From the NCBI RefSeq assembly GCF_026241755.1, contig NZ_JAPJDA010000005.1, positions 1-64,000 of the forward strand: DNA of 64,000 nt, given 5' to 3'. The position numbers were made by a program, and so were the translations under genes. The stretch comes from Salinimicrobium profundisediminis (GTDB lineage: Bacteria; Bacteroidota; Bacteroidia; Flavobacteriales; Flavobacteriaceae). The notes beneath the pieces were generated by a model. It was given only the letters and a program-made list of their open reading frames with translations. It made no database searches and was not told the DNA's origin. This document shows positions 9,537 to 54,619 of this stretch, piece by piece (the stretch's first letter is position 1; every line of letters starts with the position of its first letter).

Positions 9537-9579
9537 AAGGAGGGCGAAAAATGACATTTTTCGCCCTCCTTTTTTTTCA
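9537..9579. terminator. Strong bidirectional terminator after rocD
   Basis: A 17-bp perfect stem: AAGGAGGGCGAAAAATG and CATTTTTCGCCCTCCTT with a single A loop, followed by a run of T (and preceded by a run of A for the opposite strand). The top of the stem is the AAAATGACATTTT palindrome found repeatedly in this window. It separates rocD from the convergent CCC-motif gene. Confidence 0.9.
9548..9560. repeat. AAAATGNCATTTT palindrome (1 of 9)
   Basis: AAAATGACATTTT at the top of the rocD terminator stem. The other exact copies are at 10719-10731, 15418-15430, 20344-20356, 21701-21713, 26348-26360, 32141-32153, 48428-48440 and 53666-53678. See the finding on this motif. Confidence 0.85.
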
Positions 9580-9640
9580 AAGTTCAAAGTTCCAGGTTCA
9601 GGTTTCTGAACACTGAGCACCGAATATTGATCACTTAAAA

Positions 9641-9967
9641 CTACTGGTTTTGGTAAACTTCCATAGATTCCATGACCATTTCCTGCATCCCATCCCATCC
9701 GTAGATAGCCACAAGTACAATATTTAGAAGCAGGTACAGTCCCGAAAGTATAACTCCTATAATAGCAAGAATTCTTCCGGTTTTTACATTGTTATAACCT
9801 TCGTAAATATCCGGTTGAGCCATGTAGGTTTGTTTAGCAGTCTTTGCCAATACCAGGGCTACAATCCCAAAGATAAGGCCGAGGATCCCATAGCAGCAGC
9901 AAGTTACGATAGAAAGGATTCCGAAAACCAGGATAAGTGTTGAATTTGGTAAAGTTTGTTTTTCCAT
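9641..9967 (-). CDS. CCC-motif membrane protein
   Basis: A 108-aa protein with two long hydrophobic segments (residues about 10-40 and 65-90). The first contains SIVTCCCYGILGL, the three-cysteine motif that gives this flavobacterial family its name, followed by GLIFGIVALVLA. The tail after the second segment is short and acidic (GMQEMVMESMEVYQNQ). It follows the DUF2752 gene by 12 nt and is probably in one operon with it and the T9SS cargo gene. Function unknown. Confidence 0.8.
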   Translation of the reverse strand: MEKQTLPNSTLILVFGILSIVTCCCYGILGLIFGIVALVLAKTAKQTYMAQPDIYEGYNNVKTGRILAIIGVILSGLYLLLNIVLVAIYGWDGMQEMVMESMEVYQNQ

Positions 9968-9979
9968 AATTATTATTGG

Positions 9980-10264
9980 TTAGTTGATCAAAAAACTCAT
10001 TTTATAAATATAAGCACCTATTATCACGGCGGCACTCACTACAATAAGGCCGGCTTTAATATACCAGTCACCTTTAAACTTGTAGAATAAGTTGGTGACA
10101 AGAAAAAGTAACAGGATGAGGATAGGGTAAATTGCGGGAAACATCTTAAAAGCAGCGCTAAATTCTCCCTGAAGTACCAGTACCAGTGCCCGCTGTGCAC
10201 CGCAACCCAGGCAATCTATGCCAAACAACTGTTTGTTCAAACAAGGGAGCATGAATTCTTCCAT
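9980..10264 (-). CDS. DUF2752 family membrane protein
   Basis: A 94-aa inner-membrane protein. The N-terminal CLNKQLFGIDCLGCGAQRA matches the DUF2752 signature (C-x-GCG-x-x-RA), followed by two hydrophobic segments (IYPILILLLFLVTNLFY and AGLIVVSAAVIIGAYIY). ATG 10264 is used; an in-frame TTG lies at 10273. It begins right after the stop of the T9SS cargo gene and precedes the CCC-motif gene; DUF2752 and CCC-motif genes are commonly neighbours in flavobacteria. Function unknown. Confidence 0.82.
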   Translation of the reverse strand: MEEFMLPCLNKQLFGIDCLGCGAQRALVLVLQGEFSAAFKMFPAIYPILILLLFLVTNLFYKFKGDWYIKAGLIVVSAAVIIGAYIYKMSFLIN

Positions 10265-10269
10265 ATAGG

Positions 10270-12105
10270 TCAATGGTTATAAACTGATATTTTTTTAACG
10301 GTTTTGCGATTATTCATATCAATTACCTTTACAATATAAACGCCGTTTCCCCACGGCCGGGTTGAAATCTCTACAGACCTTCGGTTGTCAAAGTTACTGC
10401 GGTACCACATTTTTTTCCCCTGCAGGTCAAAAATTTCTACAGCCTTTATCGGGAAAAGATCGTTGCTTATTATTTGCAGTGCTCCCAGGCGGTTATTTTG
10501 ATGAATGCTGAATTTTAAATACGCCTCTTCCTCAAAAATCACCTGTGGCAGGTCTTCTTTAGCTACTTTTTCAGCAAAAGCAAGCTTGTAACGCCCGTGA
10601 TAAATTCCCGGTTGCAGCTCTAAAGTTAAGGGTTCTTTTTTAATAGAAAAATATTCATCTGTAAGAGTATCTAGAATAAAAAGTTCATGAATTGCGGCAT
10701 TTTCAATAATTCCCTGTGAAAATGTCATTTTTTGATGCCCGGTTTCAACTTTTACAAACAGCGGGATTTCTTCAGAAATATCAAAAGGGCGTACATCAAT
10801 TATATAGCTTTCTTCACCCTGGAGCCAGCCCACATCGGTAGGCGCAAGTTCAAAAGCCCCGGCATCCATACCTGCGTCTATTTTTGGTGTTGCAGCGGGC
10901 CAAAAGGCCAGGCTCAGGCTTCTTTCGTAAAGGTCGTTCACAGTAACCTTAAGTTGTACCCGGGCAAGGCTGTTCTTTTCAGAAGTGTGTTGGTGATCTT
11001 TCTTAACTGCTTCGGGTGCCGGGGTATTTGTTCCCAATGCATTTTTTGATGGTGTTCTGTGAGAATTTTTAAAAGTGATGTTGCCTGCCTGGGCACCCTT
11101 TACCATAAAGCCCTGGCTTACAGGCAGGAATTTCTTTTGAGAAGGTTTGCCTGTGCTGCCGTCTTCCACATTTTTTACCGTTTTGAAAACCGGCGGTTCA
11201 TAAATTCCGTCAGTGCAGGGATCTACCGGACTAAAAACTCCGTAGCCGCCCATATAATCTTCGAGATTATGTGAGGAACCATTCTCTTTAGAATCCCAAA
11301 AGTAGGCGACACCGGTAGTAATATTTTGGCGTTGGATGCTTCCGTAGCAATTTGTGCTCAAAGTGCCGCTGCCAGAATTTTCGAGCAGGAAAAGACTCAG
11401 GTTGAAAGTTGATGGGTATGGATTACCTACCAGCACAAAAGCATCTGGCGTTACCGGGATGTCTAAAGTGCCGGAGACCGGTTTTCCACGAAAGTCGTAC
11501 CGCTGTGAATTTCCCGGGTTATTTGCTCTTCCGTTAACAACCACCAAATCTTTTCCCTCTGTGCCCTTCATGGTAAAACCATAACCGGGCGGGATTACCG
11601 TGTTGCCGCCAACAAATTTCCAGCTGGAGTACCCGTTGCCCTGGTAGGTGTAGATCCAGCGGGTAGAGATAGCGAGCGGGTTTGCGGTGCCGTTTGGGAC
11701 AGTGGTGAGTTGGGGTTGCCGGCTTACAATGGTTGAAACGGGAACCTGTAAAAGTGAGATGCCAAAAAGGCCATTTTCGGGAGATATTATGGGAGAACTC
11801 CAGTAATTATAGTCGTAAGCATTGGTGGTTCCTTCAGCAAAAACTGAGATGCTCCCGGTTCCGGAATTTTCTTTGTTTTGTTGCTCTCCCTGTAGTAATT
11901 CGGCATTATCTCGCAGGTATAGTGAAGCTTCATTTACTGCGGAAGGGTTTTTAACTAACCTGATATCATTTTCAATAAACAGGAAAGATTTTTCTACATA
12001 AACGTAATTTCTGTTTTGTCCATTGCCTGAAGGAGCGATGTTCAACTGGCCGAAAATTGGGTGAAAAGCAAATAAAAATGCCGTAACCAGTAGAAATCTT
12101 CTCAT
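10270..12105 (-). CDS. Secreted protein with T9SS type A sorting domain
   Basis: A 611-aa protein with a signal peptide (MRRFLLVTAFLFAFHPIFG, then QLNIAP) and a C-terminal type A sorting domain: about residues 530-611, with KAVEIFDLQGKKMWY and NGVYIVKVIDMNNRKTVKKI followed by a short basic end. It should pass the inner membrane by Sec and the outer membrane by the type IX system, whose regulator PorX is also encoded in this window. The body has FVLVGNPYPSTFN and GFMVKG segments typical of large flavobacterial surface proteins. No enzyme domain seen. Codon 10719-10731 region carries one AAAATGNCATTTT site. Confidence 0.85.
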   Translation of the reverse strand: MRRFLLVTAFLFAFHPIFGQLNIAPSGNGQNRNYVYVEKSFLFIENDIRLVKNPSAVNEASLYLRDNAELLQGEQQNKENSGTGSISVFAEGTTNAYDYNYWSSPIISPENGLFGISLLQVPVSTIVSRQPQLTTVPNGTANPLAISTRWIYTYQGNGYSSWKFVGGNTVIPPGYGFTMKGTEGKDLVVVNGRANNPGNSQRYDFRGKPVSGTLDIPVTPDAFVLVGNPYPSTFNLSLFLLENSGSGTLSTNCYGSIQRQNITTGVAYFWDSKENGSSHNLEDYMGGYGVFSPVDPCTDGIYEPPVFKTVKNVEDGSTGKPSQKKFLPVSQGFMVKGAQAGNITFKNSHRTPSKNALGTNTPAPEAVKKDHQHTSEKNSLARVQLKVTVNDLYERSLSLAFWPAATPKIDAGMDAGAFELAPTDVGWLQGEESYIIDVRPFDISEEIPLFVKVETGHQKMTFSQGIIENAAIHELFILDTLTDEYFSIKKEPLTLELQPGIYHGRYKLAFAEKVAKEDLPQVIFEEEAYLKFSIHQNNRLGALQIISNDLFPIKAVEIFDLQGKKMWYRSNFDNRRSVEISTRPWGNGVYIVKVIDMNNRKTVKKISVYNH

Positions 12106-12181
12106 TTTCCCGAAATTTGTAGCTTTGACGATTCAAGTTACTACTCTTTTTTGATTTTAATCAACTGGCAAACAAATAATT

Positions 12182-12400
12182 ATGAAAAAGCCTTCTTCTC
12201 AGTTTATCAATTCCGCGGTCATAATAATAGGTGGCGTGCTTCTCATTTTTGAAATTTCGGGAGAAGAGAGAAATGTATATGTGATGATTATTGGGCTGGT
12301 GATGTTGATGTTTGGGCTATATAGAGCTACCAATTATTGGGTTGAGACTAAAGACGACCATAAAAAAGATGAAGAAGGTGAAAATAATAATTCTCTTTAG
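12182..12400 (+). CDS. Small membrane protein
   Basis: A 72-aa protein with two hydrophobic segments (SAVIIIGGVLLIFEI and YVMIIGLVMLMFGLYRA) and a charged tail rich in K, D, E and N. I do not recognise the family. Its stop TAG (12398-12400) lies 2 nt before the ATG of the Smr gene, so the two are probably cotranscribed. Confidence 0.7.
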   Translation: MKKPSSQFINSAVIIIGGVLLIFEISGEERNVYVMIIGLVMLMFGLYRATNYWVETKDDHKKDEEGENNNSL

Positions 12401-12402
12401 TG

Positions 12403-13985: not shown

Positions 13986-15134
13986 ATGAAAAAAGTCTAC
14001 TTTGATAATGCCGCAACTACGCAGATTCGCGAAGAAGTGGTAGAGCGAATGGCCCAGGTAATGCGTGATGTATATGGAAATCCTTCCTCAACTCACACCT
14101 TTGGCCGCAGTGCAAAAACTCTAATAGAACAGGCTCGCAAAACAGTGGCAAAGATCCTCAATGTTGCGGCCTCAGAAATTATTTTCACCTCGGGCGGTAC
14201 AGAAGCCGATAATCTTATTCTCAATTCGGCCGTTCGGGACCTGGGCGTAAAGCGCATCATTACTTCAAAAATTGAACACCATGCCGTGCTTCATACCATT
14301 GATAAGCTTCACGATGTTTTTGGGACCGAAATTATTTACGTGAACCTTGATGACTGCGGAAGAGTTGATCTAAAGCACCTGGAAGAAATCCTGAAATCTT
14401 CAGATGAAAAGACCCTGGTGAGCCTAATGCATGTGAATAATGAAGTAGGTAATTTACTGGACATTGCAAAAGTAGGGGAGTTATGTAGTGCTCACAATGC
14501 TTTGTTTCATTCAGATACCGTGCAGTCCATTGGGCATTACGAACTTGACCTTTCTCAGGTGAAAGTTGACTTTACCGCTGTAAGTGCCCATAAATTCCAC
14601 GGACCCAAAGGTGTTGGTTTTGCTTATATCCGAAAAAACAGCGGTTTGCAGCCACTTATTTTTGGAGGCGAGCAGGAGCGGGGATTTCGCGCCGGGACCG
14701 AAGCCGTCCATAATATTGTAGGGCTGGAGGAAGCATTGAAGTTAGCTTACCAAAATTTACACGAAGAGAGGGAATATATCACCTCTCTAAAAAGGCATTT
14801 TACAGACCTCTTAAAAAAGGAAATTCCCGGAGTAAAATTCAACGGCGACTGCGGTGACTTTGAGAATAGTACTTATACGCTTATCAACGTATGCCTGCCC
14901 ATGTCTCAGGAAAAAGCGCTAATGCTGTTGTTCCAGCTGGACCTTCACGGGATTGCGTGCTCTAAAGGTAGTGCCTGCCAAAGCGGAAGCGATAAGGGAA
15001 GCCACGTGCTAAACGCCTTTTTGCCTGCCGAAGATCTGAAAAAGCCTTCTTTGCGGTTTTCTTTTTCCAGGTACAATACTAAAGAAGACATTGAATACGT
15101 GGTAAATGTGCTGAAAGAATTCCTGGAAAAATAG
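13986..15134 (+). CDS. Cysteine desulfurase family protein (NifS/IscS-like)
   Basis: A 382-aa PLP enzyme that removes sulfur from cysteine for iron-sulfur clusters or tRNA thiolation. Seen: YFDNAATTQ at the start, GNPSSTHTFGR, TSGGTEADNL, the PLP lysine in SAHKFHGPKGVG (K203), RAGTEAVHNIVG, and the catalytic cysteine loop CSKGSACQSGS (C325 and C331; C331 aligns with the IscS active cysteine). It is a class I (IscS/NifS-like) desulfurase and not SufS. It stands alone, with no iscU, suf or tRNA-thiolation gene next to it, so its sulfur acceptor is not clear. Confidence 0.9.
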   Translation: MKKVYFDNAATTQIREEVVERMAQVMRDVYGNPSSTHTFGRSAKTLIEQARKTVAKILNVAASEIIFTSGGTEADNLILNSAVRDLGVKRIITSKIEHHAVLHTIDKLHDVFGTEIIYVNLDDCGRVDLKHLEEILKSSDEKTLVSLMHVNNEVGNLLDIAKVGELCSAHNALFHSDTVQSIGHYELDLSQVKVDFTAVSAHKFHGPKGVGFAYIRKNSGLQPLIFGGEQERGFRAGTEAVHNIVGLEEALKLAYQNLHEEREYITSLKRHFTDLLKKEIPGVKFNGDCGDFENSTYTLINVCLPMSQEKALMLLFQLDLHGIACSKGSACQSGSDKGSHVLNAFLPAEDLKKPSLRFSFSRYNTKEDIEYVVNVLKEFLEK

Positions 15135-15518
15135 GAAGAGAATATTTATCCAACTTTCATTTTTAGGGTTTCATATAGGGCCGACAATTCGGAAATTATC
15201 GACACTAGCCCTAATTTTTGAGACTTTTCGCTTCAGAAATAACATTTACAACTCTTCTTTTTAGCAGGATTAAATTCGCACTGATATTAGTTGCGCTAAA
15301 ATTTCCTGCTGAAAGTTGTGCTACTTCTGGGGGATAATTATTTGCACCTGATTCTTCCATTCACTTTCACAACTTTGGATTGAAAAAAGTTCTTTTCAGA
15401 ATTTTAAAGGAACTTAAAAAATGACATTTTTGGAACCAACAGGTCTAACCGTTAGCTTTGAATTTCTGCTAAAGGCCGCTAATGCAGGAAAAGCTGGATA
15501 AATACTTCAGCTGAAAAC
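15135..15518. other. 384-bp intergenic stretch without a clear gene
   Basis: Between the convergent desulfurase and M23 peptidase genes. It contains an inverted pair AGCAGGA (15261-15267) and TCCTGCT (15303-15309), an AAAATGACATTTT palindrome (15418-15430), and a 26-codon ORF (15421-15501, starts MTFLEPTGL) that begins inside the palindrome. I see no RNA gene and no clear rho-independent terminator. It may be decayed coding sequence. Confidence 0.5.
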
Positions 15519-20311: not shown

Positions 20312-20343
20312 TTATGAGTAAGAGTTTTGAGCTATGGGTGTCA

Positions 20344-20356
20344 AAAATGGCATTTT
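20344..20356. repeat. AAAATGNCATTTT palindrome right after the pncA stop
   Basis: AAAATGGCATTTT, flanked by TCA and TTCAA so that the symmetry extends to TCAAAAATGGCATTTTTCA. It lies between the convergent membrane-protein and pncA genes and touches the pncA stop codon (20359-20357). It may act as the 3' hairpin of pncA. Confidence 0.8.
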
Positions 20357-20962
20357 TCAAAGCTCTTTTGAATGAGTTATTCTTCCGCCATTTCTAATAA
20401 TATCTTCTCTAATTTTATCAAATTCTTCCGGAAGAAGGGGCACGGCTGCGTCTTCGATCAGCGTTGCTTTAAAACCTGCTTTAAGGGCATCAAGTAAGCT
20501 GAAATAAACACAAATATCTGCAGCAAGTCCGCAAAAATAGAGTTCAACAGCTCCTCTTTCCTTTAAATATCCGCCAAGCCCAGTGATCTTCTTGTGGCCG
20601 TTATCAAAAAAGCCACTATAACTGTCTATTTCAGGGTCCATTCCTTTTCTAAAAATGGCTTCTATGGGTTTTGTTTCCAGGTTGGGATGAAAATCGGCTC
20701 CTTTTGTGCCCTGCACACAGTGCACCGGCCAAAGCTTTTGTTCCAGTCCATTAAGGTCAATTACCTCAAACTCGTTTTTTCCGGGATGATTTACGGCAAA
20801 GCTTTTATGCTCTTTTGGGTGCCAGTCCTGGGTGGCTATTACGAGTTCAAATTTCGGAAGAATTTGATTGATCACCGGGATGATCCTGTCTCCATCTTTA
20901 ACTTCAAGTGCACCGCCCGGCATAAAATCTATTTGGGCATCTACTATGATGAGTGTTTTCAT
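20357..20962 (-). CDS. pncA: Nicotinamidase (nicotinamidase/pyrazinamidase)
   Basis: A 201-aa isochorismatase-fold hydrolase that converts nicotinamide to nicotinate. Key parts: IVDAQIDFMPGGAL (catalytic Asp at 8), ATQDWHPKEHKSFA (metal His/Asp), VHCVQGTKGADFHP, RKGMDPEIDSYSGFFDN (catalytic Lys), and GLAADICV with the nucleophilic Cys. Its ATG overlaps the pncB stop by 4 nt (ATGA), so the two NAD-salvage enzymes are translationally coupled: pncA makes the substrate that pncB uses. Confidence 0.95.
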   Translation of the reverse strand: MKTLIIVDAQIDFMPGGALEVKDGDRIIPVINQILPKFELVIATQDWHPKEHKSFAVNHPGKNEFEVIDLNGLEQKLWPVHCVQGTKGADFHPNLETKPIEAIFRKGMDPEIDSYSGFFDNGHKKITGLGGYLKERGAVELYFCGLAADICVYFSLLDALKAGFKATLIEDAAVPLLPEEFDKIREDIIRNGGRITHSKEL

Positions 20963-22371
20963 GATCTCTTATTTTTGTGTTCTTCGATCAGGGAATTTCT
21001 TTCATCCTTGAGTTTTCCACTTATACCTACTTTATAGATATGCGGATTAAAGAACCTCTTGTATTCCGTAGGAAGTTGTTCCAGTCTCTTTTTGCTGAAT
21101 TCCTTTATTTCTTTGATACTGGTCTCTTTGTGAACCCTCTTTTGATCTTCCATGACCAGGCTCAAAAGTTCTTCTTTTTCTACATCGCCAACAAACCGGA
21201 ATTTTAAAGGATCGTAGGGATGGTACATCATTTCAGGATTTCCTTCACCTGCCACACAAACCACGTCGGCACCCAAAAAGTTACCTGAATCATCAAGCAA
21301 TCTATACACTTGCTTGCGATGTGGCAGGGTTACTTTAGCAATAGTTTCCGAAAGTTTGATCCTGGGCTTGTTCTTAAAAAGAGATAGTTTATAGACGCCA
21401 TCCAGGGCGGCATCGGGCTTTCCTGTAACCAGGTTTGTTCCCACCCCAAAAATATCTATAGGCGCTTCCTGATCGAGCAAACTCTTGATAAGATGCTCGT
21501 CCAGCTGATTGGAAACTGATATTTTTACGTAATCCAGCCCCGCTTTGTCCAACATCTCACGAGATTTTCTTGCTAAATAAGCAAGGTCACCGCTATCGAG
21601 CCTAATTCCCTTGAGCTTTTCGCCACGGCTTTCCATCTCTTTACCAACCTGTATGGCATTAGGAATTCCGCTCTTCAAGGTATCGTAAGTGTCTACCAGT
21701 AAAATGGCATTTTTGGGATGAATTTCAGCAAAATCCCTGAATGCATCCAGCTCGTTTTCATAACTCTGAATAAAGGAATGCGCCATGGTGCCTGAAACCG
21801 GAAAGTGAAAATCCCTTCCGGCACGGGTATTACTTGTGGCTTCAAAGCCGCCGATAATAGCTGCCCTGCTCGCGTGATAGCCCCCAAACCCCTGTGCTCT
21901 TCTAAGTCCGAAATCTATCAACGTACTGCCTTTAGCCTGAATAGCCATTCTTGCTGCTTTTGTAGCAATGAGCGTCTGGAAATTCAGCACATTCAAAAGT
22001 AGGGTTTCAATGATCTGGGCTTCAATGATATTTGCCTCTACTCTCACCACGGGAGCACCGGGAAATACCACGTCTCCTTCTTTCATGCTGAAGATCTTTC
22101 CGCGGAAGCGAAAATCTTTAAGGTAGTCGAGGTATTCTTTAGAGAAGTTTTGAGTGCTGAGAAACTCCAGGTCTTTATCTGAAAATTTAAAATCCTGAAG
22201 GTAATCCAGGAGGGTTTCGAGCCCGGCGAATATTGCAAAGCCCCCTTCAAAAGGTAATTTCCTGAAAAAATAATCGAAAATGGCAGTCTCTTCTGCTTCT
22301 CCTTTGCTGAAGTATACCTGTCCCATTGTGAGCTGGTACTGATCTGTGTAAGTACCGCTTATATCTATCAT
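20959..22371 (-). CDS. pncB: Nicotinate phosphoribosyltransferase
   Basis: A 470-aa enzyme making nicotinate mononucleotide from nicotinate and PRPP. It opens DISGTYTDQYQLTMGQVYF and has TLIDFGLRRAQG, ATSNTRAGRDFHFPVSGTMAHSFIQ (with the catalytic His), GIRLDSGDLAYLARK and VGTNLVTGKPDAALDGVYKL, all standard for the family. Followed by pncA (4-nt overlap). The transporter-like gene upstream is 36 nt away on the same strand and may be cotranscribed. One AAAATGGCATTTT site falls in codons for KNAILL. Confidence 0.95.
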   Translation of the reverse strand: MIDISGTYTDQYQLTMGQVYFSKGEAEETAIFDYFFRKLPFEGGFAIFAGLETLLDYLQDFKFSDKDLEFLSTQNFSKEYLDYLKDFRFRGKIFSMKEGDVVFPGAPVVRVEANIIEAQIIETLLLNVLNFQTLIATKAARMAIQAKGSTLIDFGLRRAQGFGGYHASRAAIIGGFEATSNTRAGRDFHFPVSGTMAHSFIQSYENELDAFRDFAEIHPKNAILLVDTYDTLKSGIPNAIQVGKEMESRGEKLKGIRLDSGDLAYLARKSREMLDKAGLDYVKISVSNQLDEHLIKSLLDQEAPIDIFGVGTNLVTGKPDAALDGVYKLSLFKNKPRIKLSETIAKVTLPHRKQVYRLLDDSGNFLGADVVCVAGEGNPEMMYHPYDPLKFRFVGDVEKEELLSLVMEDQKRVHKETSIKEIKEFSKKRLEQLPTEYKRFFNPHIYKVGISGKLKDERNSLIEEHKNKRS

Positions 22372-26154: not shown

Positions 26155-27438
26155 ATGAAAAAAGTACTTATAGTTACTTATTACTGGCCCCCGGCCGGTG
26201 GCCCCGGGGTGCAGCGGTGGCTTAAATTTGTAAAATATCTTCCTGAAAATGGAATAGAACCTATAGTTTATACCCCCGAAAATCCTCATTACCCTCTGAA
26301 AGATACCAGTCTTGAAGCCGAAATTCCTTCAGAAATAAAGGTGCTTAAAAATGCCATTTTTGAACCCTATGCTGTCGCCGGAATGCTGTCAAAAAAGGAT
26401 ACGGAAAAGATTAGCTCCGGAATTATTCCGAAGGAACAAAAGCAGGGCTTTTTGCAGAAGTTCATGCTTTTCATTCGGGGTAACTTCTTTATTCCCGATG
26501 CGCGGAAGTTCTGGATAAAACCTTCAGTAAAATATCTTACAAGCTACCTGAAGGAGCATGAAATTGATACGATAATTACTACAGGGCCGCCCCACAGTAT
26601 GCACCTTATTGGTATGGAGCTTAAAAAAACAATGGGTGTAAAGTGGCTGGCCGATTTTCGCGATCCCTGGACGCAGATTGGGTACCACAGCAAGTTAAAA
26701 CTGCTTCCCGCTTCCCGTAAAAAACACCAGGAACTGGAAAAAGAGGTGCTGCAGAGCGCCGAAAAAATTATAACCACCAGTTTTACCACTAAAGCGGAAT
26801 TTCTTTCAAAAACGAAGAGGCCTGTTGAAGTAATTACTAACGGATATGATGTTGAGAAGGTAGAAAAACTTCCAATGGACGAAAAGTTTAGTATTTCGCA
26901 TATAGGCTCGTTGCTTTCAGGAAGAAATCCGGAGAATCTATGGCAGGCGATTTCAGAGTTAATTACCGAAAATGAAGATTTTGCAAAAGATTTTCAGCTT
27001 AAGCTTGTGGGAGCAGTGGGAGATCCGGTTTTGGAGAGTATTCAAAAATGGCATTTGGAAGAGTGGTTGGTTTTAAAGAATTACGTGTCTCATTCAGAAG
27101 CTTTACAATTGCAGAAAAGTTCGCAGTTGCTCCTGCTAATTGAAATAGATAGTGAGGAAACAAAGGGAATAATTCCTGGGAAATTGTTTGAGTATATGGT
27201 GAGTGAACGTCCCATTCTTGCGGTAGGGCCTGTAGATGCCGATATTGAAAAGATCATTAGAGAAACCAATACAGGGTCTTATTTTCTGTACCCTCAAAAA
27301 GGGGAAATTAAGGCTTACATTTTAGAGAAGTATGAACTCTTCAAAAAAGGCGAATTGAGGTCGTATCCCATAGGTTTGCAGCAGTACAGCAGGAGTGCCC
27401 TTGCAAAGAGATTGGCAAATCTTATAAAGCAGTTGTAA
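26155..27438 (+). CDS. Family 4 glycosyltransferase
   Basis: A 427-aa GT-B enzyme. The N-terminal domain has KKVLIVTYYWPPAGGPGVQRWLKF, the glycine-rich nucleotide-sugar acceptor loop, and TTGPPHSMHLIGMEL, WLADFRDPWT. The C-terminal domain has ISHIGSLLSGRNPENL and the E-x7-E-like segment GIIPGKLFEYMVSERPILAVG. There is no signal peptide. It starts 21 nt after YfhO and its TAA overlaps the ATG of the flippase gene (TAATG). Probably adds a sugar to a lipid-linked or surface glycan; the sugar is unknown. Confidence 0.9.
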   Translation: MKKVLIVTYYWPPAGGPGVQRWLKFVKYLPENGIEPIVYTPENPHYPLKDTSLEAEIPSEIKVLKNAIFEPYAVAGMLSKKDTEKISSGIIPKEQKQGFLQKFMLFIRGNFFIPDARKFWIKPSVKYLTSYLKEHEIDTIITTGPPHSMHLIGMELKKTMGVKWLADFRDPWTQIGYHSKLKLLPASRKKHQELEKEVLQSAEKIITTSFTTKAEFLSKTKRPVEVITNGYDVEKVEKLPMDEKFSISHIGSLLSGRNPENLWQAISELITENEDFAKDFQLKLVGAVGDPVLESIQKWHLEEWLVLKNYVSHSEALQLQKSSQLLLLIEIDSEETKGIIPGKLFEYMVSERPILAVGPVDADIEKIIRETNTGSYFLYPQKGEIKAYILEKYELFKKGELRSYPIGLQQYSRSALAKRLANLIKQL

Positions 27439-30297: not shown

Positions 30298-33084
30298 CTA
30301 TAATTTTTCCTTGAGAAAAGGAGCCGTATAGGATTTTTTGTTCTTTGCTACTTCTTCAGGGGTTCCCGCAGCAATAAGTTGGCCGCCTGTGTCACCACCT
30401 TCAGGTCCCAGGTCAATAACATGATCGGCACATTTTACAAGATCCATATTGTGCTCAATTACAATTACCGAATGCCCTTTTGCTAAAAGTGCATTAAATG
30501 ATTTGAGTAGCTTTTGAATATCGTGAAAATGTAAACCTGTGGTGGGTTCATCAAAAATAAACAACGCTTTTTCTTTTGAACTTCCTTTTACCAGGAAAGA
30601 CGCAAGTTTAATCCTTTGGGCTTCCCCGCCCGACAGGGTAGAAGAGCTTTGCCCGAGTTGGACATAGCCAAGACCCACATCCTGCAGTGGTTTTAGCTTT
30701 GCAGTGATCTTGTCTTCCCCGTTTTCGCTGAAAAAATTAACGGCATCATCAATGGTCATGCTAAGCACATCATCAATATTTTTTCCGGCGAAGTTCACTT
30801 CTAAAACTTCCTTTTTAAAACGCTTGCCATTACAGGTTTCACAAAGCAGGTGAACGTCGGCCATGAACTGCATTTCAATAGTTACTTCTCCTTCGCCTTT
30901 ACAGGTTTCACAACGCCCACCATCTACATTGAACGAAAAATGTTTGGGTTTGTAACCGCGAATATCACTTAGCTTTTGATTGGAGAACAGGTTCCTAATA
31001 TCGTCATAGGCTTTAATGTAGGTCACGGGGTTGGAGCGTGAGGAACGGCCAATAGGATTCTGATCTACAAATTCAATTGTGGTAACATTTCCAAACTTCC
31101 CTTCAATTCGGGTAAACTGTCCGGCTTTTTCTCCATAGCCCCCAATTTCCTTGCGCAGGGCAGGATAAAGTATTTTTTTGATCAGAGTACTTTTTCCACT
31201 TCCTGAAACCCCCGTTACTGCTGTAAAAACACCCAGCGGAAATCTTACATCCAAATTTTTAAGGTTGTTCTCCCTGGCGCCTATAATGTCAACAAAGTAT
31301 TTATAATCCCGTCTTTTAGAAGGAACTTTGATCTCAAGAACGTTGTTGAGGTATTGTGCGGTGAGAGAATCTGAAATAAGAATATCAGCATAGGTCCCGG
31401 CAGCAACGACTTCTCCGCCGTTGGTGCCGGCTTCAGGACCAATGTCAATAATCTCGTCTGCAGCTTTCATGATATCTTCATCATGTTCTACGACAATTAC
31501 AGTATTACCAAGATCACGAAGAGATTTAAGGACTTCAATGAGCTTTAACGTATCGCGGGGATGCAATCCAATAGAAGGTTCATCAAGAATATACATAGAA
31601 CCCACAAGGCTACTGCCGAGGGAAGTGGCGAGGTTAATTCGCTGAGATTCTCCTCCCGAGAGGGTGTTCGATTTTCTGTTTAAAGTCAAATAATTGAGGC
31701 CTACTTTTAAAAGAAATCCAAGCCTGTTGTTTATTTCGGTAAGCAGCCTTTTTGCAATGGCGGCATCTGATTCATTTAAATCTAAGTTTGCAAAGAAGTC
31801 GGCTACTTTATTGACCGGCATTTCTACCAGTTGGGTAATTGTAGCTCCTCCTACCTTTACATAATTAGCTTCGGGGCGCAACCTTTTTCCTTTACATACA
31901 GAACATTTTGTTTTTCCGCGATAGCGGGAAAGCATTACACGGTTCTGAATTTTGTAAGCCTTGGATTCCAGGAAAGCAAAGAATTGATTTAATCCTTCAA
32001 AATACTGGTTCCCATTCCAGATAAGATCTTTTTGCTCCTGTGTGAGTTCAAAATAAGGCTTGTGAATTGGGAAATTGAATTTGTGGCTGTTATTTACCAA
32101 TTGATCCCTGTACCAGCTCATGCTGTCACCACGCCACGGAAAAATGGCATTTTCGTACACCGATAAACCGGTATTGGGAATGACAAGATCTTCGTCAATA
32201 CCAATCACATCTCCATAACCTTCGCATTTTGGGCAGGCACCATAAGGATTATTGAAGCTGAACAAATGCACGTTAGGCTCCAGAAAAGTCATGCCGTCAA
32301 GCTCAAACTTATTACTGAACTGCCTGATCTTACTGTCTGATAAACTTTCAATGAATAATTCCCCTTTTCCTTCAAAAAAGGCAGTTTGAGTAGCGTCTCC
32401 AAGCCGATTTAGAAAATCTTCATCATCTTTCACCACAATCCTGTCTACTACAAGAAACAGGTCTTTTTCTGCTATTTTTGAAAGGTCAGCTTCATCGATC
32501 CGCAGTACATCACCTTTGTACTTTATACGGCTGTATCCCTGTTGTAGCAAAACTTTCAGTTTTTCCTGTGGCGTGCGACTTTGTTCTACATGAACAGGTG
32601 CCAAAAGTAGCATTTTTGACCCCTCAGGAAAAGATTGTACATAATTCACTACATCGGTAACAGTGTCTTTTTTCACTTCCTCTCCCGAAACAGGGGAGTA
32701 GGTTCTTCCAATTCGGGCAAAAAGGAGTTTCAGGTAATCGTATATTTCCGTAGAAGTTCCAACGGTTGAACGTGGATTGGTGGAATTTACCTTTTGTTCG
32801 ATTGCAATAGCCGGGGCAATCCCTTTTATAGAGTCTACCTGTGGCTTGTTCAGCCTTCCCAGGAACTGTCGGGCATAAGATGATAAACTTTCAACGTACC
32901 GGCGTTGGCCTTCGGCGTACAAGGTATCGAAAGCCAAAGATGATTTTCCCGATCCCGAAAGCCCGGTTAGAACCACCAGCTTATTCCGGGGAATTACTAC
33001 GTTTATATTCTTTAGGTTATGAAGGCGTGCTCCTTTTATTATTATGTTCTCTTTTGGATCTACTCCTGAGATATCTACTTGCAT
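30298..33084 (-). CDS. uvrA: Excinuclease ABC subunit A (UvrA)
   Basis: A 928-aa DNA damage sensor of nucleotide excision repair. It has two ABC ATPase halves: Walker [10 protein letters not shown] (residue about 41) and GVSGSGKST, signatures LSGGESQRI and LSGGEAQRI, and three zinc modules ([27 protein letters not shown] with CETCNGK). Length is normal. It stands alone, with its own promoter and terminator; no SOS box was recognised upstream. An AAAATGGCATTTT site lies in codons for ENAIF. Confidence 0.97.
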
Positions 33085-48188: not shown

Positions 48189-48233
48189 ATTTTATATTGA
48201 ATATTGACTATTGACTATTTAATATTTAATATT

Positions 48234-48285
48234 AAGGCTGCTTAAAAGGGCATTTTTGGAAATGAACTTTTAAGCAGCCTTTTTC
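48234..48285 (+). terminator. Terminator after fabG
   Basis: AAGGCTGCTTAAAAG (48234-48248) pairs with CTTTTAAGCAGCCTT (48267-48281) over 15 bp, then TTTT. The loop is GGCATTTTTGGAAATGAA, again including the CATTTTTGGA motif. Confidence 0.9.
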
Positions 48286-48327: not shown

Positions 48328-50358
48328 ATGCCGGTTTCAACATTTTTACTTATTTTCCTCTCTTTTGTGCTTGCTTTGATAGTGGCGTTGTTCCAGTATT
48401 TTTATAAAACAAAAAGGCGGGGTTCTAAAAATGCCATTTTTGCCACCTTACGTTTTTTGGCAATATTCGCCCTTCTGGTATTACTTATCAATCCCAAAAT
48501 TAGCAGTACCCGGTATTATACCCAAAAACCAGCTTTAGTGCTGGCTGTAGACAATTCTTCGTCTATTGAGGAATTTGGAGCAGGAGAAGAAGTGATAAAT
48601 TTTGCTGAAGCCATCCGTCAGGACCAGCAGTTGAAGGAAAATTTTGATATAAAGATATTTTCCTTCGGAAAAGATCTTGAACAGCATGATTCCCTGAATT
48701 TTGAAGCTCCTCAAACAAACCTTCCTGCCGTTTTTAACCGTCTTGCTTCCCTCTACGAAGATCAGGTGGCACCAACAGTGCTTATTACAGACGGAAACCA
48801 GACCATAGGGGAAGAATTTACCTTTGCTGCTGAACGTTATCGGCAACCGGTACTTCCGGTAGTGGTGGGAGATACTGTGAAATATCAGGATTTAAATATC
48901 TCCAGGATCAACGTTAATAAATATGCCTTTTTGAACAATCGTTTTCCGGTGGAGATCATGCTGAATTATTCCGGGAATTCTTCCGTAGAAACAAAGCTGG
49001 AGATTTTAGAAGGGAATTCAGTGGTGCATTCAGAGCAGCTTTCATTTTCTTCCCAAAATAATTCCGAAGTAATAAGGGTTGAACTTCCCGCAGGGGCAGT
49101 GGGAGTTCATAATTACCTGGTGCGCCTCGAAAAACTTGATACCGAAAAGAACCTGCTCAACAATACCCGCGAATTTGCGGTAGAAGTCATTGATGAGCGT
49201 ACAAAAGTGCTTATTGCCTATTCCGTTTTACATCCTGATCTTGGAGCACTTCAAAATGCTATAGAAGCTAATCAGCAAAGGGAAGTAGAGCTTCAATCCA
49301 TAAATCAGGTTACAGATACCAAAAGTTATCAGCTTGTAATACTGTATCAACCCGATTCCAGGTTTAAGTCTTTGATGGACGGACTTCAGGAACAAAATCA
49401 GAATTATTTTCTCATAACAGGACCAAAAACCGATTGGAATTTTCTTAATCGGCAGCAGGATATTTTTAAGCAGGAGCTTACAAACCAGTCCGAAGAATTT
49501 TTCCCGGTTTGGAATGAAAATTTTAAAGCTTTTCAGACAGAAGATATCGGGTTTTCTGATTTTCCGCCACTTGAAGGAAGCTTCGGAGATTTTAAAGCTC
49601 CCGAAAATCTGGACGTCTTACTTGGCAGGGAAGTACAGGGGGTGAATACCGGTACACCTTTGATGGGGGTGACCACAGCAGGAGATTCAAAAGTTGCATT
49701 TTTGTTTGGGGCAGATATTTGGCGCTGGCGGAGTGTGGTTTTTAGAGAAACCGGATCGTTTGAGGAATTTGATGACCTCATTGGAAAATTAGTGCAGTTC
49801 CTCGCTTCAAAAGGCAGGCAGGACAGGTTACTGGTTCAATATGAACCGCTTTATAGTGGCACCGAAGAAGTCATTATTGCAGCAGATTATTTTGATCAAA
49901 GTTACATTTTTGACCGGCGGGCAAGGCTTGAAATTCAGGTAGAAAATTCGGAAACAGGAGAACAGCGGCAAATTCCCTTATTGCTCAATGGTAGCTCTTA
50001 CAAAGTAGATTTGAGCAGCCTGCCAGCCGGAGATTACAACTTCAGGGTAAGTGCGGCAGGTGAAGGTTTATCACAGTCGGGCAGTTTTAGGATACTCGAT
50101 TTTGATGTAGAAAAGCAATTTGGAAGAGCGAATATAGAGGGGCTTCAGCAAATTGCAGATCAAAGAGGAGGGCAGGTTTATTTTCTGCAGGAATTTCAGC
50201 AGCTCAAGAACGATTTATTATCCAACGATTCTTACGCTACAGTCCAGAAAAGCCGTGAAAAGAACGTATCTTTGATTGACTGGAAATATTTACTGGGAAT
50301 CATTGTTTTAGCCCTTGGTGCTGAGTGGTTCTTAAGAAAATATTACGGCCTTATATAA
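48328..50358 (+). CDS. VWA-like membrane protein
   Basis: A 676-aa protein with two N-terminal TM helices (TFLLIFLSFVLALIVALFQYFY and FATLRFLAIFALLVLLINP), a von Willebrand A-like domain (VLAVDNSSSIEEFG as a near-MIDAS DxSxS, VLITDGNQTIGEEF), Ig-like and glutamine amidotransferase-like parts (residues about 260-480) and a final TM helix (WKYLLGIIVLALGAEWFL). The layout resembles BatA/BatB-like and DUF4159-related membrane proteins. It precedes a prohibitin by 20 nt. Function unknown; contains an AAAATGCCATTTT site (codons KNAIF). Confidence 0.8.
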   Translation: MPVSTFLLIFLSFVLALIVALFQYFYKTKRRGSKNAIFATLRFLAIFALLVLLINPKISSTRYYTQKPALVLAVDNSSSIEEFGAGEEVINFAEAIRQDQQLKENFDIKIFSFGKDLEQHDSLNFEAPQTNLPAVFNRLASLYEDQVAPTVLITDGNQTIGEEFTFAAERYRQPVLPVVVGDTVKYQDLNISRINVNKYAFLNNRFPVEIMLNYSGNSSVETKLEILEGNSVVHSEQLSFSSQNNSEVIRVELPAGAVGVHNYLVRLEKLDTEKNLLNNTREFAVEVIDERTKVLIAYSVLHPDLGALQNAIEANQQREVELQSINQVTDTKSYQLVILYQPDSRFKSLMDGLQEQNQNYFLITGPKTDWNFLNRQQDIFKQELTNQSEEFFPVWNENFKAFQTEDIGFSDFPPLEGSFGDFKAPENLDVLLGREVQGVNTGTPLMGVTTAGDSKVAFLFGADIWRWRSVVFRETGSFEEFDDLIGKLVQFLASKGRQDRLLVQYEPLYSGTEEVIIAADYFDQSYIFDRRARLEIQVENSETGEQRQIPLLLNGSSYKVDLSSLPAGDYNFRVSAAGEGLSQSGSFRILDFDVEKQFGRANIEGLQQIADQRGGQVYFLQEFQQLKNDLLSNDSYATVQKSREKNVSLIDWKYLLGIIVLALGAEWFLRKYYGLI

Positions 50359-51242: not shown

Positions 51243-51251
51243 TATCACACA

Positions 51252-51308: not shown

Positions 51309-51337
51309 GATTGATATGTGTATAATCCATATTTCAA

Positions 51338-51371: not shown

Positions 51372-51407
51372 TTCCCCTTGGTCTGCCTGAACATAAAATC
51401 AACTAAA

Positions 51408-52265
51408 ATGAACAGAATTAGAATTGCAGTACAAAAGTCGGGTAGATTACACGATGATTCCCTTAAGCTCTTAAAAGACGCCGGAATTTCTATTGATAAC
51501 GGGAGAGAACAACTCAAGGCAACTTCAGGCAACTTTCCTCTCGAAGTGTTTTATTTACGCAATGGAGACATTCCGCAATATCTACGGGATGGGGTGGTTG
51601 ACGCTGCCATTATTGGCGAGAATGTACTTGTTGAAAAAGGGGAAGATATTATAGTGGCCGAAAAACTTGGTTTCTCAAAATGCCGGGTTTCCCTTGCCGT
51701 ACCTAAATCGGCTAAATATTCGGGTGTAGAAGATCTACAGGGCGCCAGGATCGCAACTTCATATCCTAACACGGTAAGAGATTACCTCTCAAAAAAGGGA
51801 GTTACAGCCGATCTTCACATTATTAATGGCTCGGTAGAGATTGCACCAAATATTGGCCTGGCCGATGCTATTTGTGATATTGTTTCCAGTGGGAGCACGC
51901 TCTTTAAGAACAACTTGAAGGAAGTAGAAGTAATGCTGAAAAGTGAAGCAGTTTTGGCAGTTTCGCCCGAAATTTCTTCAGAAAGAAAAGAGGTTCTTGA
52001 AAAGTTGCAGTTCAGGATCAAAGCTGTTTTACGCGCCCGTAGTTCGAAGTATATTCTTATGAACGTTCCAAATAGCAAACTTGACGCTGTAGTTAAATTG
52101 CTTCCGGGAATGAGAAGTCCTACGGTACTGCCTTTAGCCGAAGAGGGCTGGAGTTCACTGCACACAGTAATTTCAGAAGAAAGGTTCTGGGAAGTGATAG
52201 ATGAGCTAAAGCAAAATGGTGCCGAGGGAATTCTTGTTGCACCCATCGAAAAAATGGTACTCTAA
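51408..52265 (+). CDS. hisG: ATP phosphoribosyltransferase
   Basis: A 285-aa long-form HisG, the first enzyme of histidine synthesis and the point of feedback control. RIAVQKSGRLHDDSLKLLKDAGI, GDIPQYLRDGVVDAAIIGENVL, GARIATSYPNTVRDYL and the PRPP loop VSSGSTLFKNNL are visible; residues about 210-285 form the C-terminal regulatory domain that binds histidine. ATG 51408 is used; the longer frame runs through the attenuator. No hisZ is needed for this form. Confidence 0.96.
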   Translation: MNRIRIAVQKSGRLHDDSLKLLKDAGISIDNGREQLKATSGNFPLEVFYLRNGDIPQYLRDGVVDAAIIGENVLVEKGEDIIVAEKLGFSKCRVSLAVPKSAKYSGVEDLQGARIATSYPNTVRDYLSKKGVTADLHIINGSVEIAPNIGLADAICDIVSSGSTLFKNNLKEVEVMLKSEAVLAVSPEISSERKEVLEKLQFRIKAVLRARSSKYILMNVPNSKLDAVVKLLPGMRSPTVLPLAEEGWSSLHTVISEERFWEVIDELKQNGAEGILVAPIEKMVL

Positions 52266-52275
52266 ATCTGAAATA

Positions 52276-53574
52276 ATGAAGAAATTTTTTAATCCGCAAA
52301 GACAGGAATGGGAAGCAATACTCGAGCGACCAACCAAAACTGTCGCAGATATTGAACAAATTGTCGAACAGATTTTCAGGGAAGTAAAAGCCGGAGGTGA
52401 CGCAGCCGTTAAAAATTATTCCGAACTTTTTGACGGGTATAAATCTGATGCTTTTGAAGTTACTTCTGAAGAAATAAAGAAAGCATCAGCTGCAGTTTCC
52501 GAAGAACTTAAAGCCGCTATAGATCTGGCCAAAGAAAATATCCGGAAGTTTCATGCCGCTCAGAAAACATCACCTGTTTCAGTTGAAACGGTTTCGGGGG
52601 TAGCGTGCTGGCAGGAGAAACGGCCTATCCAGAAAGTGGGCTTGTATATTCCGGGTGGTACAGCGCCTTTGTTTTCTACGATATTGATGCTTGCCGTACC
52701 TGCGCAAATTGCAGGCTGTAAAGAGGTGGTTCTTTGTACGCCGCCTGCAAAAGATGGTTCTGTGAACCCCGCGATCCTTTACACCGCACAACTTTGCGGG
52801 ATAAAGAAGATTTATAAAGTGGGAGGAATTCAGGCTGTTGCAGCCATGACCTTTGGCACACAGAGTATTGATAAGGTCTACAAGATCTTTGGCCCGGGAA
52901 ACCAGTATGTTACCGTCGCTAAACAAATGGCTACCAAGTATAATGTGGCGATAGATATGCCTGCCGGCCCTTCGGAATTACTTGTGGTAGCCGATGCGTC
53001 TGCCGATGCAGCTTTTGTAGCTTCCGATTTACTCTCACAGGCCGAACACGGAACCGATAGTCAGGTGGTGCTTGTATCTCTTTCAAAAGCACTTCTGGAA
53101 GAGGTAGCTTCTGAAATTGAAAAGCAGCTCGAAGAACTTCCGCGGAAGGAGACTGCACAGGCAGCAATAGCACACTCCAGGTTTATTTATATGAATTCTG
53201 AAGAGAAAGCACTCGAACTTATTGATGAGTATGCTCCCGAACATTTGATTATCTGCACCTCAAATCCCGATTTATTTGTGGAAGGTATAAATAATGCAGG
53301 TTCTGTATTTATTGGAAACTATACGCCCGAAAGTGCCGGAGATTATGCTTCGGGCACAAATCACACGCTTCCAACCAATGGATATGCGAAACAGTACAGT
53401 GGTGTAAATCTGGACAGTTTCACCAAAGCCATTACTTTTCAGAAGATCTCTTCGGAAGGAATCCAGAAGATTGGGCCTTCCATCGAATTAATGGCAGAGG
53501 CTGAAGGTTTACAGGCGCACAAAAATGCTGTGACTCTAAGGTTAAAGAAATTAAAAGCTTCGGGTAATGAGTAA
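52276..53574 (+). CDS. hisD: Histidinol dehydrogenase
   Basis: A 432-aa enzyme for the last two oxidations to histidine. It has YIPGGTAPLFSTILMLAVPAQIAGC, GGIQAVAAMTFGT, KIFGPGNQYVTVAKQ, IDMPAGPSELLVVADASAD, QAEHGTDSQVV (catalytic His/Glu) and SGTNHTLPTNGYAKQYSGVN. ATG 52276 lies 10 nt after hisG. The end overlaps hisC by 8 nt. Confidence 0.96.
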   Translation: MKKFFNPQRQEWEAILERPTKTVADIEQIVEQIFREVKAGGDAAVKNYSELFDGYKSDAFEVTSEEIKKASAAVSEELKAAIDLAKENIRKFHAAQKTSPVSVETVSGVACWQEKRPIQKVGLYIPGGTAPLFSTILMLAVPAQIAGCKEVVLCTPPAKDGSVNPAILYTAQLCGIKKIYKVGGIQAVAAMTFGTQSIDKVYKIFGPGNQYVTVAKQMATKYNVAIDMPAGPSELLVVADASADAAFVASDLLSQAEHGTDSQVVLVSLSKALLEEVASEIEKQLEELPRKETAQAAIAHSRFIYMNSEEKALELIDEYAPEHLIICTSNPDLFVEGINNAGSVFIGNYTPESAGDYASGTNHTLPTNGYAKQYSGVNLDSFTKAITFQKISSEGIQKIGPSIELMAEAEGLQAHKNAVTLRLKKLKASGNE

Positions 53575-54619
53575 TAGTTTTGATCTCAACAGTTTGGTGC
53601 GGGCAAATGTCCTGAAAATGAAACCTTATTCTTCGGCAAGGGACGAGTACAAAACTGACGGCCGAAAAATGACATTTTTGGATGCCAATGAAAATCCTTT
53701 TGAGAATGGCGTAAACCGTTATCCCGATCCGCAGCAGGGAAAGCTGAAGCAGCTGCTTGCCTCTCAAAAAGGTGTTTCTGGGAATAAAATTTTGTTAGGG
53801 AATGGAAGCGATGAAGTGCTGGATCTTATTTTCAGAACCTTTTGCCAGCCCCAGGTAGATAATGTGATCACCCTGCCACCAACTTACGGAATGTATAAAG
53901 TTTTGGCAGGCCTGAATGAAGTTGAAGACAGGGAGGTGGTTCTTAAAACCGACTTTCAGCCCAATGTTGAAACTATTCTTGAAAGAGTGGATGGGCAGAC
54001 GAAGCTTATTTTCCTTTGCTCTCCGAACAATCCCACCGGCAATTCATTTTCGGAAGCTTCCGTAGAAAAGATCCTCAAAAATTTTAATGGATTGGTGGTC
54101 ATTGATGAAGCTTATATAGATTTTTCAGCCGAAAAAAGTTGGCTTCAGCGGTTAGAAGAATTTCCGAACCTGGTGATCACGCAAACATTATCCAAAGCTT
54201 ATGGGCTTGCCGGAATAAGGTTGGGGATCTGCTATGCTTCCGAAGAAATTATAGGAATACTAAATAAAATTAAGCCGCCTTATAATGTGAACGAGCTTAC
54301 TCAAAAACGAGCACACGATCGATTGTCCAGGCCCGAAGAGGTGAGCCGGGAGGTTGAGGCGATTCTTCAGGAGAGAGAGTCGCTGCGTACTAACCTCTCA
54401 AAAATGGCATTTGTGAAGGACATTTTTCCGTCAGATGCTAATTTTTTACTGGCCAGAGTAGATGATGCTGCCGGGAAATATGAGCAGTTGCTCAAAGCCG
54501 GGGTGGTGGTGCGCAACCGAAGCAACCAGGAACTATGTGAGAACACCCTGAGGTTTACGGTGGGAACGCCTGAAGAAAACAGGGAATTAATTAAGAAATT
54601 AACGCAACTTGAAGCATGA
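53567..54619 (+). CDS. hisC: Histidinol-phosphate aminotransferase
   Basis: A 350-aa class I/II PLP transaminase. [58 protein letters not shown] and [16 protein letters not shown] with the PLP Lys are present. Its ATGA overlaps the hisB start by 4 nt. An AAAATGACATTTT site lies in codons KMTF near the N-terminus and a near copy in KMAF. Confidence 0.95.

What the first reader, a model, noticed from the sequence alone, without database searches (positions are those of the whole stretch)
9548..53678. A highly repeated palindrome, AAAATGNCATTTT, spread over genes and spacers
The exact 13-mer AAAATGNCATTTT occurs nine times: 9548 (N=A), 10719 (T), 15418 (A), 20344 (G), 21701 (G), 26348 (C), 32141 (G), 48428 (C), 53666 (A). 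With independent bases at 30% A/T and 20% G/C each, about 0.015 copies are expected in 64 kb. Many more sites match in part (6661, 25286, 27047, 47348, 48249, 54403, 58325, 58510). Three exact copies are between genes and six are inside genes on both strands. No transposon or known repeat family explains it. It could be a highly iterated palindrome like HIP1 of cyanobacteria, a chromosome-organising or segregation site, a methylation site, or a binding site for a nucleoid protein.
Basis: partly seen in the sequence, partly recalled or inferred. Interest (0 to 1): 0.75.

Follow-up and report, generated by a model that had tools for sequence, protein, structure and literature searches.

The report
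Candidate DNA uptake sequence in Salinimicrobium
A long mirror-symmetric DNA word repeated many hundreds of times in one group of bacteria looks like a "self" label read by their DNA-uptake machinery, because it abounds where that machinery is intact and is nearly missing in the two relatives that appear to have lost it.

Summary
The window (genus Salinimicrobium) has nine exact AAAATGNCATTTT. Its genome has 460 (reversed control 3), relative G009 424, eight others 34-225; 393 genomes of other genera in the family have 0-20. The 13-mer is the core of a roughly 41-bp dyad-symmetric motif, aaaAA.aGctcTCAAAAATGCCATTTTTGAgagCt.TTttt, at 550-580 sites per Mb (about 10% false) in the two genomes modelled. 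It lies in genes and spacers, densest after stop codons, sparse between divergent genes, and is kept at orthologous places.

Three parts of the Flavobacteriaceae transformation machinery (ComEC, a helix-hairpin-helix protein, DUF5689) are intact in all 10 genomes with the motif. In G003 (19 copies, background density) the first two are broken and the third absent; in G001 (0 copies, 74% complete) none was found. Known uptake sequences share the core with A/T tracts, the sharp peak at the perfect core and the number per genome. Three methyltransferase families, HU and histones gave no explanation.

Best reading: a palindromic DNA uptake sequence maintained by biased uptake. Uptake was not tested, and the 10 carriers are one clade, so the contrast is one or two events.

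The parts
9534..9574 (.). motif copy, exact core 9548-9560, intergenic (convergent), apex of a terminator-like hairpin
   Evidence: score 28.7
10705..10745 (.). motif copy, exact core 10719-10731, inside a gene with a T9SS sorting signal
   Evidence: score 22.0
15404..15444 (.). motif copy, exact core 15418-15430, intergenic (convergent)
   Evidence: score 18.1
20330..20370 (.). motif copy, exact core 20344-20356, core immediately after the stop of the isochorismatase-domain gene
   Evidence: score 36.2
21687..21727 (.). motif copy, exact core 21701-21713, inside the nicotinate phosphoribosyltransferase gene
   Evidence: score 19.1
26334..26374 (.). motif copy, exact core 26348-26360, inside a glycosyltransferase-domain gene
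   Evidence: score 35.5
32127..32167 (.). motif copy, exact core 32141-32153, inside uvrA
   Evidence: score 20.5
48414..48454 (.). motif copy, exact core 48428-48440, inside gene 48328-50358 (no Pfam family at 1e-5)
   Evidence: score 26.2
53652..53692 (.). motif copy, exact core 53666-53678, inside an aminotransferase gene
   Evidence: score 27.4
6647..6687 (.). motif copy with one core mismatch, in a gene
   Evidence: score 27.3
11751..11791 (.). motif copy with one core mismatch, in a gene
   Evidence: score 30.6
14775..14815 (.). motif copy with one core mismatch, in a gene
   Evidence: score 24.8
32590..32630 (.). motif copy with two core mismatches but good arms, in uvrA
   Evidence: score 26.5
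48230..48270 (.). motif copy with one core mismatch, intergenic
   Evidence: score 25.7
54387..54427 (.). motif copy with one core mismatch, in a gene
   Evidence: score 26.1
58495..58535 (.). motif copy with one core mismatch, in a gene
   Evidence: score 24.4

Best explanation
The motif is a DNA uptake sequence, a self label for natural transformation. A cell-surface part of the Flavobacteriaceae transformation machinery binds this roughly 41-bp symmetric word (core AAAATGNCATTTT plus A tracts and T tracts about 18 bp from the centre) and prefers DNA that carries it. Because such DNA is taken up and recombined more often, copies spread through the genome wherever genes and promoters tolerate them, giving about 2,000 or more copies (extrapolated) and a sharp excess of perfect cores. 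Shown here: the motif, its genome-wide abundance, its limitation to one clade, its maintenance at orthologous places, its position bias, and its coincidence with intact transformation genes. Inferred: that these bacteria are competent, that uptake prefers the motif, and that the receptor is the DUF5689 protein or a neighbour of it.
For: Presence and absence: ComEC (PF03772) has an open frame in 10 of 10 motif genomes; G003 has a remnant with stops and G001 only a weak match under the cut-off. The roughly 297-aa HHH protein (PF12836) is open in 10 of 10, broken in G003 and not found in G001. DUF5689 (PF18942) is in 10 of 10 and in neither of the two. The G003 remnants were confirmed by tblastn. 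Motif density by one matrix, net of shuffles: 188-486 per Mb in the eight other clade genomes scanned (G008 was not), 72 in G003, 0 in 38 kb of G001, 54 in 79 loci of other genera, which all hold uvrA with its own motif-like site in part of them. Mismatch profile: over-representation falls 33-fold from 0 to 1 mismatch and 9.6-fold from 1 to 2 in G000, 30 and 8.0 in G009; H. influenzae and N. gonorrhoeae are reported at 92/9 and 82/7 (PMC1939737, passages). H. influenzae has 2,206 sites with a core plus A/T tracts (PMC7811141, passages). Position: exact copies per kb 1.50 convergent, 0.77 tandem, 0.23 divergent, 0.07 coding. Family context: Riemerella columbina prefers its own DNA, and only A/T-rich words are listed as candidate motifs there (PMC7965970 section 16).
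Against: I saw no uptake data for this genus (one search lists 15 of 97 papers naming it). The 10 carriers are one clade in the uvrA tree, so 10 versus 2 is only one or two independent contrasts; G001 is 74% complete. G002 counts as a carrier mainly for its looser-centred form: it has 34 exact copies, not far from G003's 19, and none in 464 kb sampled. The mismatch drop is smaller in G005 (19 and 6.1) and G006 (9 and 6.3). Other Flavobacteriaceae genera are reported to have homologues of this machinery (PMC8459023 section 20), but the 393 genomes of other genera do not have this motif in number, so machinery is not sufficient. The uptake sequences I know of are not palindromic (recalled). Weak symmetric signal and TTCNGAA words reach beyond 21 bp from the centre, which could fit a wrapping protein. 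I searched eight protein families across genomes, five before the three transformation ones, so the match was found after a search. In G003 the clade's sites are no better kept than neighbouring DNA (3.7 versus 3.6 mismatches), so it shows no clear relic of a former motif.
Confidence: 0.62

Rival explanations
1. Binding site of a clade-specific architectural (nucleoid) protein that bends or wraps DNA around a dyad; selection keeps about one site per 1.7 kb, away from promoters.
For: Dyad symmetry with A/T tracts near 5 and 18 bp from the centre, gap tolerance of 5-7 bp between the inner tracts, conservation of A4-N5-7-T4 pairs in genes (0.76 versus 0.46 for other spacings to G009), low density between divergent genes.
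Against: No substitution in the arm region of either HU protein sets the four carriers aligned apart from G003, G001 and four other genera; no histone fold in 25 genomes; does not predict the coincidence with transformation genes; so strong a peak at the perfect core is unusual for such proteins (inference).
Confidence: 0.2
2. Highly iterated palindrome of the HIP1 type tied to a DNA methyltransferase.
For: Hundreds of copies of a palindrome in genes and spacers.
Against: Within the genus PF01555 is over its cut-off only in G000, G005, G009 and PF00145 only in G004, G007, G010; PF02086 in none; carriers G002, G006, G008, G011 have none of the three over the cut-off (other methyltransferase families not searched). 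The motif is 41 bp with graded arms.
Confidence: 0.05
3. Strong DNA gyrase or other topoisomerase sites.
For: Symmetric extended motif and enrichment after genes; E. coli gyrase has a 130-bp symmetric motif (PMC6379681, passages). An even-centred form, AAAAAGGCCTTTTT with similar arms, also emerges from 6-bp-gap seeds.
Against: Here the strong part is about 43 bp and the commonest core has its dyad on a base; the E. coli motif is degenerate, cut with a 4-bp stagger, and its enrichment after genes seems not to be encoded in sequence. Gyrase is universal (recalled), the motif is confined to one clade.
Confidence: 0.05
4. Transcription terminators or other RNA hairpins.
For: Some intergenic copies are the apex of long hairpins with A and T tracts, e.g. 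9548.
Against: About half of the exact copies (27 of 56 in G000, 29 of 66 in G009) are inside genes, where a terminator would cut the message. Hairpin strength was not computed.
Confidence: 0.03

Closest known systems
Uptake signal sequence (USS) of Pasteurellaceae, Haemophilus influenzae
   Same: About 2,000 copies per genome, short strict core plus A/T tracts, steep drop from perfect to mismatched copies (PMC7811141 and PMC1939737, passages).
   Different: USS is asymmetric (recalled) and treated as a 29-bp sequence; here the motif is a dyad of about 41 bp. Uptake was tested there, not here. Uptake there involves a pilus; none is shown here.
DNA uptake sequence (DUS) of Neisseriaceae
   Same: Abundance and species dialects (PMC3630211 seen as title and start of abstract only); here the arms and centre differ between species.
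   Different: 10-12 bp, asymmetric, bound by the pilin ComP (recalled); no receptor is known here.
Self-DNA preference of Riemerella columbina
   Same: Same family; own DNA outcompetes foreign DNA (PMC7965970 section 16). R. anatipestifer needs ComEC, an HHH protein, a DUF5689 protein and an outer-membrane partner (PMC8459023 sections 19, 20).
   Different: Only A/T-rich words of 7-10 bp were listed as candidate motifs there; no palindrome of this kind.
HIP1 of cyanobacteria
   Same: Highly iterated palindrome (PMC4390886, passages).
   Different: 8 bp, accompanied by methyltransferases; here 41 bp and none shared among three families tested.
E. coli DNA gyrase motif
   Same: Symmetric, extended, A/T and G/C alternation.
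   Different: 130 bp, degenerate, 10.75-bp period (PMC6379681, passages).

Membership tests
DNA uptake sequence (USS/DUS) | Strong genome-wide over-representation of a specific word | tested here: met
   460 copies versus 3 for the reversed control; 56 versus 0.35 expected by order-4 Markov in 357 kb
DNA uptake sequence (USS/DUS) | Over-representation falls steeply and monotonically with mismatch load | tested here: met
   834, 26.6, 3.7, 2.0, 1.4 fold at 0-4 mismatches in G000; similar in G009; shallower in G005 and G006; G002 sample has no exact copy
DNA uptake sequence (USS/DUS) | Transformation machinery intact in carriers | tested here: met
   ComEC, HHH protein and DUF5689 in 10 of 10 carriers; broken or undetected in the 2 motif-poor members; DprA, ComF, DUF1343 and the outer-membrane partner not tested
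DNA uptake sequence (USS/DUS) | DNA with the motif is preferentially taken up | not testable with these tools
   needs an uptake experiment
DNA uptake sequence (USS/DUS) | A surface receptor binds the motif | not testable with these tools
   DUF5689 protein is only a candidate
HIP1-type palindrome | Highly iterated exact palindrome | tested here: met
HIP1-type palindrome | At least one methyltransferase able to act on it in every carrier (Elhai 2015) | tested here: not met
   PF01555, PF00145, PF02086: 4 of 10 carriers have none over the cut-off; other methyltransferase families not searched
HU/IHF site | A DNABII protein changed in number or DNA-contact arms in the carriers | tested here: not met
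   2-3 matches in all 12 genus genomes, the third in G006, G008 and G011 weak; in 10 genomes aligned (4 carriers, G003, G001, 4 other genera) no arm change sets the carriers apart
Gyrase strong site | 130-bp motif with 10.75-bp periodic flanks | tested here: inconclusive
   strong part ends near 21 bp from the dyad; weak signal to about 35 bp
Dispersed repeat element (REP, MITE) | Copies share homologous flanks | tested here: not met
   printed flanks of the exact copies differ outside the motif, read by eye, except one tandem array in L020

The most novel reading that the evidence does not exclude
Salinimicrobium has a palindromic DNA uptake sequence, the first known in Bacteroidota and the first read by a transformation machine without a type IV pilus; the receptor is the DUF5689 surface protein with its outer-membrane partner, acting as a symmetric complex, and species differ by dialects of one symmetric motif.
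Probability: 0.45. Interest if true: 0.88.

Novelty: new variant of a known kind. Interest (0 to 1): 0.8.

Why it matters
Uptake sequences are described for Pasteurellaceae and Neisseriaceae (PMC7811141 abstract). A symmetric one in Flavobacteriaceae, where self-DNA preference has been measured in one species but no motif or receptor is established, would give that machinery a substrate code, make the receptor question directly testable, and offer a further, independent case for whether such words spread by drive.

Tried and rejected
Half-site as the unit: after masking all copies with up to 2 mismatches the half-site CAAAAATG is no longer among the top enriched words. Transposon or repeat family: flanks differ. 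Segregation or ori/ter site: 0-7 copies per stretch in 26 stretches (16 or 20 kb) of complete genome G009 with no clear trend by eye; gap CV 1.02-1.19 on two contigs. HU change, histone, methyltransferases. Phage origin: a 17-bp extended word occurs once each in 21 viral contigs, read as background. I first took stretch L031 for a foreign island because it lacks exact copies; Pfam shows dnaA and housekeeping genes there, so that argument was dropped. L169 ends in a transposase and L175 looks like a sugar-use region without exact copies; too few to build on. The EM motif search on 79 outgroup loci with 5-bp-gap seeds returned a sequence that looks like the uvrA gene which brought those loci in. 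Origin and terminus: GC skew switches near 1.6 and 3.4 Mb in G009 and dnaA is at base 1; I did not settle which end is which.

Literature: (open-licence PubMed Central only). In their listings (titles, starts of abstracts) and in the parts of papers opened I saw no such motif described for Bacteroidota; I did not read each listed paper.
Full report
Observation. The genome (G000, 4.04 Mb, 101 contigs) has 460 exact copies; the same pattern read backwards has 3. An order-4 Markov model expects 0.35 in the 357 kb sampled, where 56 were found.

Organism and range. Relative G005 has a contig of 336,855 bases, the length of a contig of Salinimicrobium sp. TH3 that uvrA also retrieved, so I name the genus Salinimicrobium. 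Eleven other genus members have 0, 34, 19, 201, 207, 121, 225, 164, 424, 191 and 118 copies (G001-G011). Of 397 family genomes searched, 4 are of the genus; the other 393 have 0-20, with reversed controls 0-12.

Anatomy. Flanks are not random: symmetric preferences run to about 21 bp on each side, alike in genes and spacers. Expectation-maximisation from the exact copies gives aaaAA.aGctcTCAAAAATGCCATTTTTGAgagCt.TTttt with 21-22 bits: 206 sites (22 in shuffled sequence) in 357 kb of G000 and 277 (24) in 504 kb of G009, or about 2,300 per G000 genome by extrapolation. Searches seeded only with A4-gap-T4 pairs find the same architecture in G005 and G006 and a looser-centred form in G002; seeds with a 6-bp gap give an even-centred variant, AAAAAGGCCTTTTT, with similar arms. 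A4 and T4 at gaps 5 and 6 exceed the baseline by 2.5/3.0 (G000), 2.7/3.0 (G009), 2.4/2.3 (G006), 2.9/2.2 (G011), 2.3/2.2 (G002), 1.8/2.1 (G004), 1.8/1.8 (G005), 1.5/1.8 (G010), 1.5/1.3 (G007), 1.4/1.4 (G003), 1.4/1.2 (G001, 38 kb only) and 0.8/0.9 in 79 loci of other genera (G004, G007, G010 and G011 rest on 64 kb each). A matrix trained without the window finds 35 sites in it against a shuffle mean of 2.9.

Position. In G000, 28 exact copies are intergenic, 27 coding, 1 at an edge; in G009 36, 29 and 1, though 88.5% of bases are called coding (my own simple gene caller). Pooled densities of exact copies per kb are 1.50 in convergent, 0.77 in tandem and 0.23 in divergent spacers and 0.07 in genes. 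The 50 bp after stop codons hold 38 site-stop pairs (a convergent site can count twice), the highest bin. Sites with up to 1 mismatch are spaced nearly at random. The G000 comEC gene itself appears to hold two exact copies (coordinates).

Maintenance. Between G000 and G009 (85% identical) 8 of 9 exact window sites are unchanged; comparable A/T-rich 12-position windows are unchanged in 26%. In genes, A4-N5-7-T4 pairs are fully conserved more often than the same words 20-60 bp apart: 0.76 versus 0.46 (G009), 0.63/0.31 (G005), 0.42/0.30 (G007), 0.59/0.34 (G004), 0.42/0.19 (G010), 0.61/0.26 (G006), 0.51/0.23 (G011), 0.35/0.14 (G002). In spacers the numbers are small (8-27 pairs): higher than control in seven genomes, not in G006 (0.44/0.47). 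Exact sites in the more distant species are often changed: kept in G005 1 of 8, G007 0 of 6, G004 4 of 8, G010 2 of 6, G006 2 of 8, G011 3 of 6, G002 0 of 4.

Which protein. HU-type proteins are as many in and out of the genus, and in the 10 genomes aligned no arm change marks the carriers. No histone fold. Methyltransferase families PF01555, PF00145 and PF02086 are scattered or absent. Reading on Flavobacteriaceae transformation pointed to ComEC, a periplasmic HHH protein and a DUF5689 surface protein next to an outer-membrane protein (PMC8459023, passages and sections 19 and 20), and to preference for own DNA in R. columbina (PMC7965970, section 16). I searched three families of that machinery, the only ones tested. 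ComEC: open frame of 648-690 aa in the 10 carriers; G003 has a remnant, G001 a weak match under the cut-off. HHH protein, frames of 292-308 aa: open in the 10, broken in G003, not found in G001. DUF5689: in the 10, in neither other. In G003 the ComEC remnant is five pieces within about 800 bp covering some 240 of 628 residues, and the HHH gene has four in-frame stops in the alignment. G001 is 74% complete, but G008, 75% complete, has all three. The frame next to DUF5689 in G009, only partly in the locus, matched no Pfam family, so its identity with the Riemerella outer-membrane partner is inferred from position. Type IV pilus genes were not searched.

Tree. In a uvrA tree (drawn from its midpoint) the 10 carriers group together (96/93) and G003 and G001 fall outside, G003 beside other genera. 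The contrast is therefore one or two events, not twelve. Matrix density net of shuffles is 188-486 per Mb in the eight carriers scanned (G002 248; G000 trained the matrix, G008 was not scanned), 72 in G003, 0 in 38 kb of G001 and 54 in the outgroup loci, part of which is uvrA itself. By exact copies alone G002 (34) and G003 (19) are close; the matrix and the A4-T4 signal separate them. In G003, positions orthologous to clade sites are kept no better than nearby windows (3.7 versus 3.6 mismatches over 11 comparisons, several of them the same site).

Comparison. The fall in over-representation from 0 to 1 and 1 to 2 mismatches (33 and 9.6 in G000; 30 and 8.0 in G009; 19 and 6.1 in G005; 9 and 6.3 in G006) resembles in shape the reported 92 and 9 (H. 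influenzae) and 82 and 7 (N. gonorrhoeae) (PMC1939737). H. influenzae has 2,206 sites with a core and A/T tracts whose predicted bend is thought to aid uptake (PMC7811141). What differs is the dyad symmetry and a machinery whose surface parts have no homologues in known transformation systems (PMC8459023). I therefore say it works like a DNA uptake sequence; membership awaits an uptake test.

Noticed in passing
G000 and G009 stretches; also G002, G003, G005, G006: A second over-represented word, TTCCGAAGAA (57 versus about 5 expected in G000, 72 versus 7 in G009), mostly in genes, in both orientations; still enriched in G003 (34 versus 6), so not tied to transformation genes.
   Followed up: partly
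around A4-gap-T4 centres in G000, G009, G002, G005: TTCNGAA words sit preferentially about 8-10 and 20-24 bp from the centre, roughly 2-6 fold over the distant baseline, with weaker peaks further out; G006 lacks the 20-24 peak and the outgroup loci show about 2-fold at both.
   Followed up: partly
L020:3876-4985 (G000 contig C3): Five exact motif copies inside a tandem array with a unit of about 123-124 bp in one spacer.
   Followed up: no
L303, L305 (G003): comEC and the HHH gene are decayed in G003, which suggests natural transformation was lost in that lineage.
   Followed up: yes
window:32127-32167 and uvrA of other genera: uvrA apparently carries a motif-like core in some outgroups too, probably because of a conserved peptide; this inflates motif counts in loci fetched with uvrA.
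   Followed up: partly
G251: One genome of another genus has 20 exact copies against 4 in its control, the highest outside the genus.
   Followed up: no
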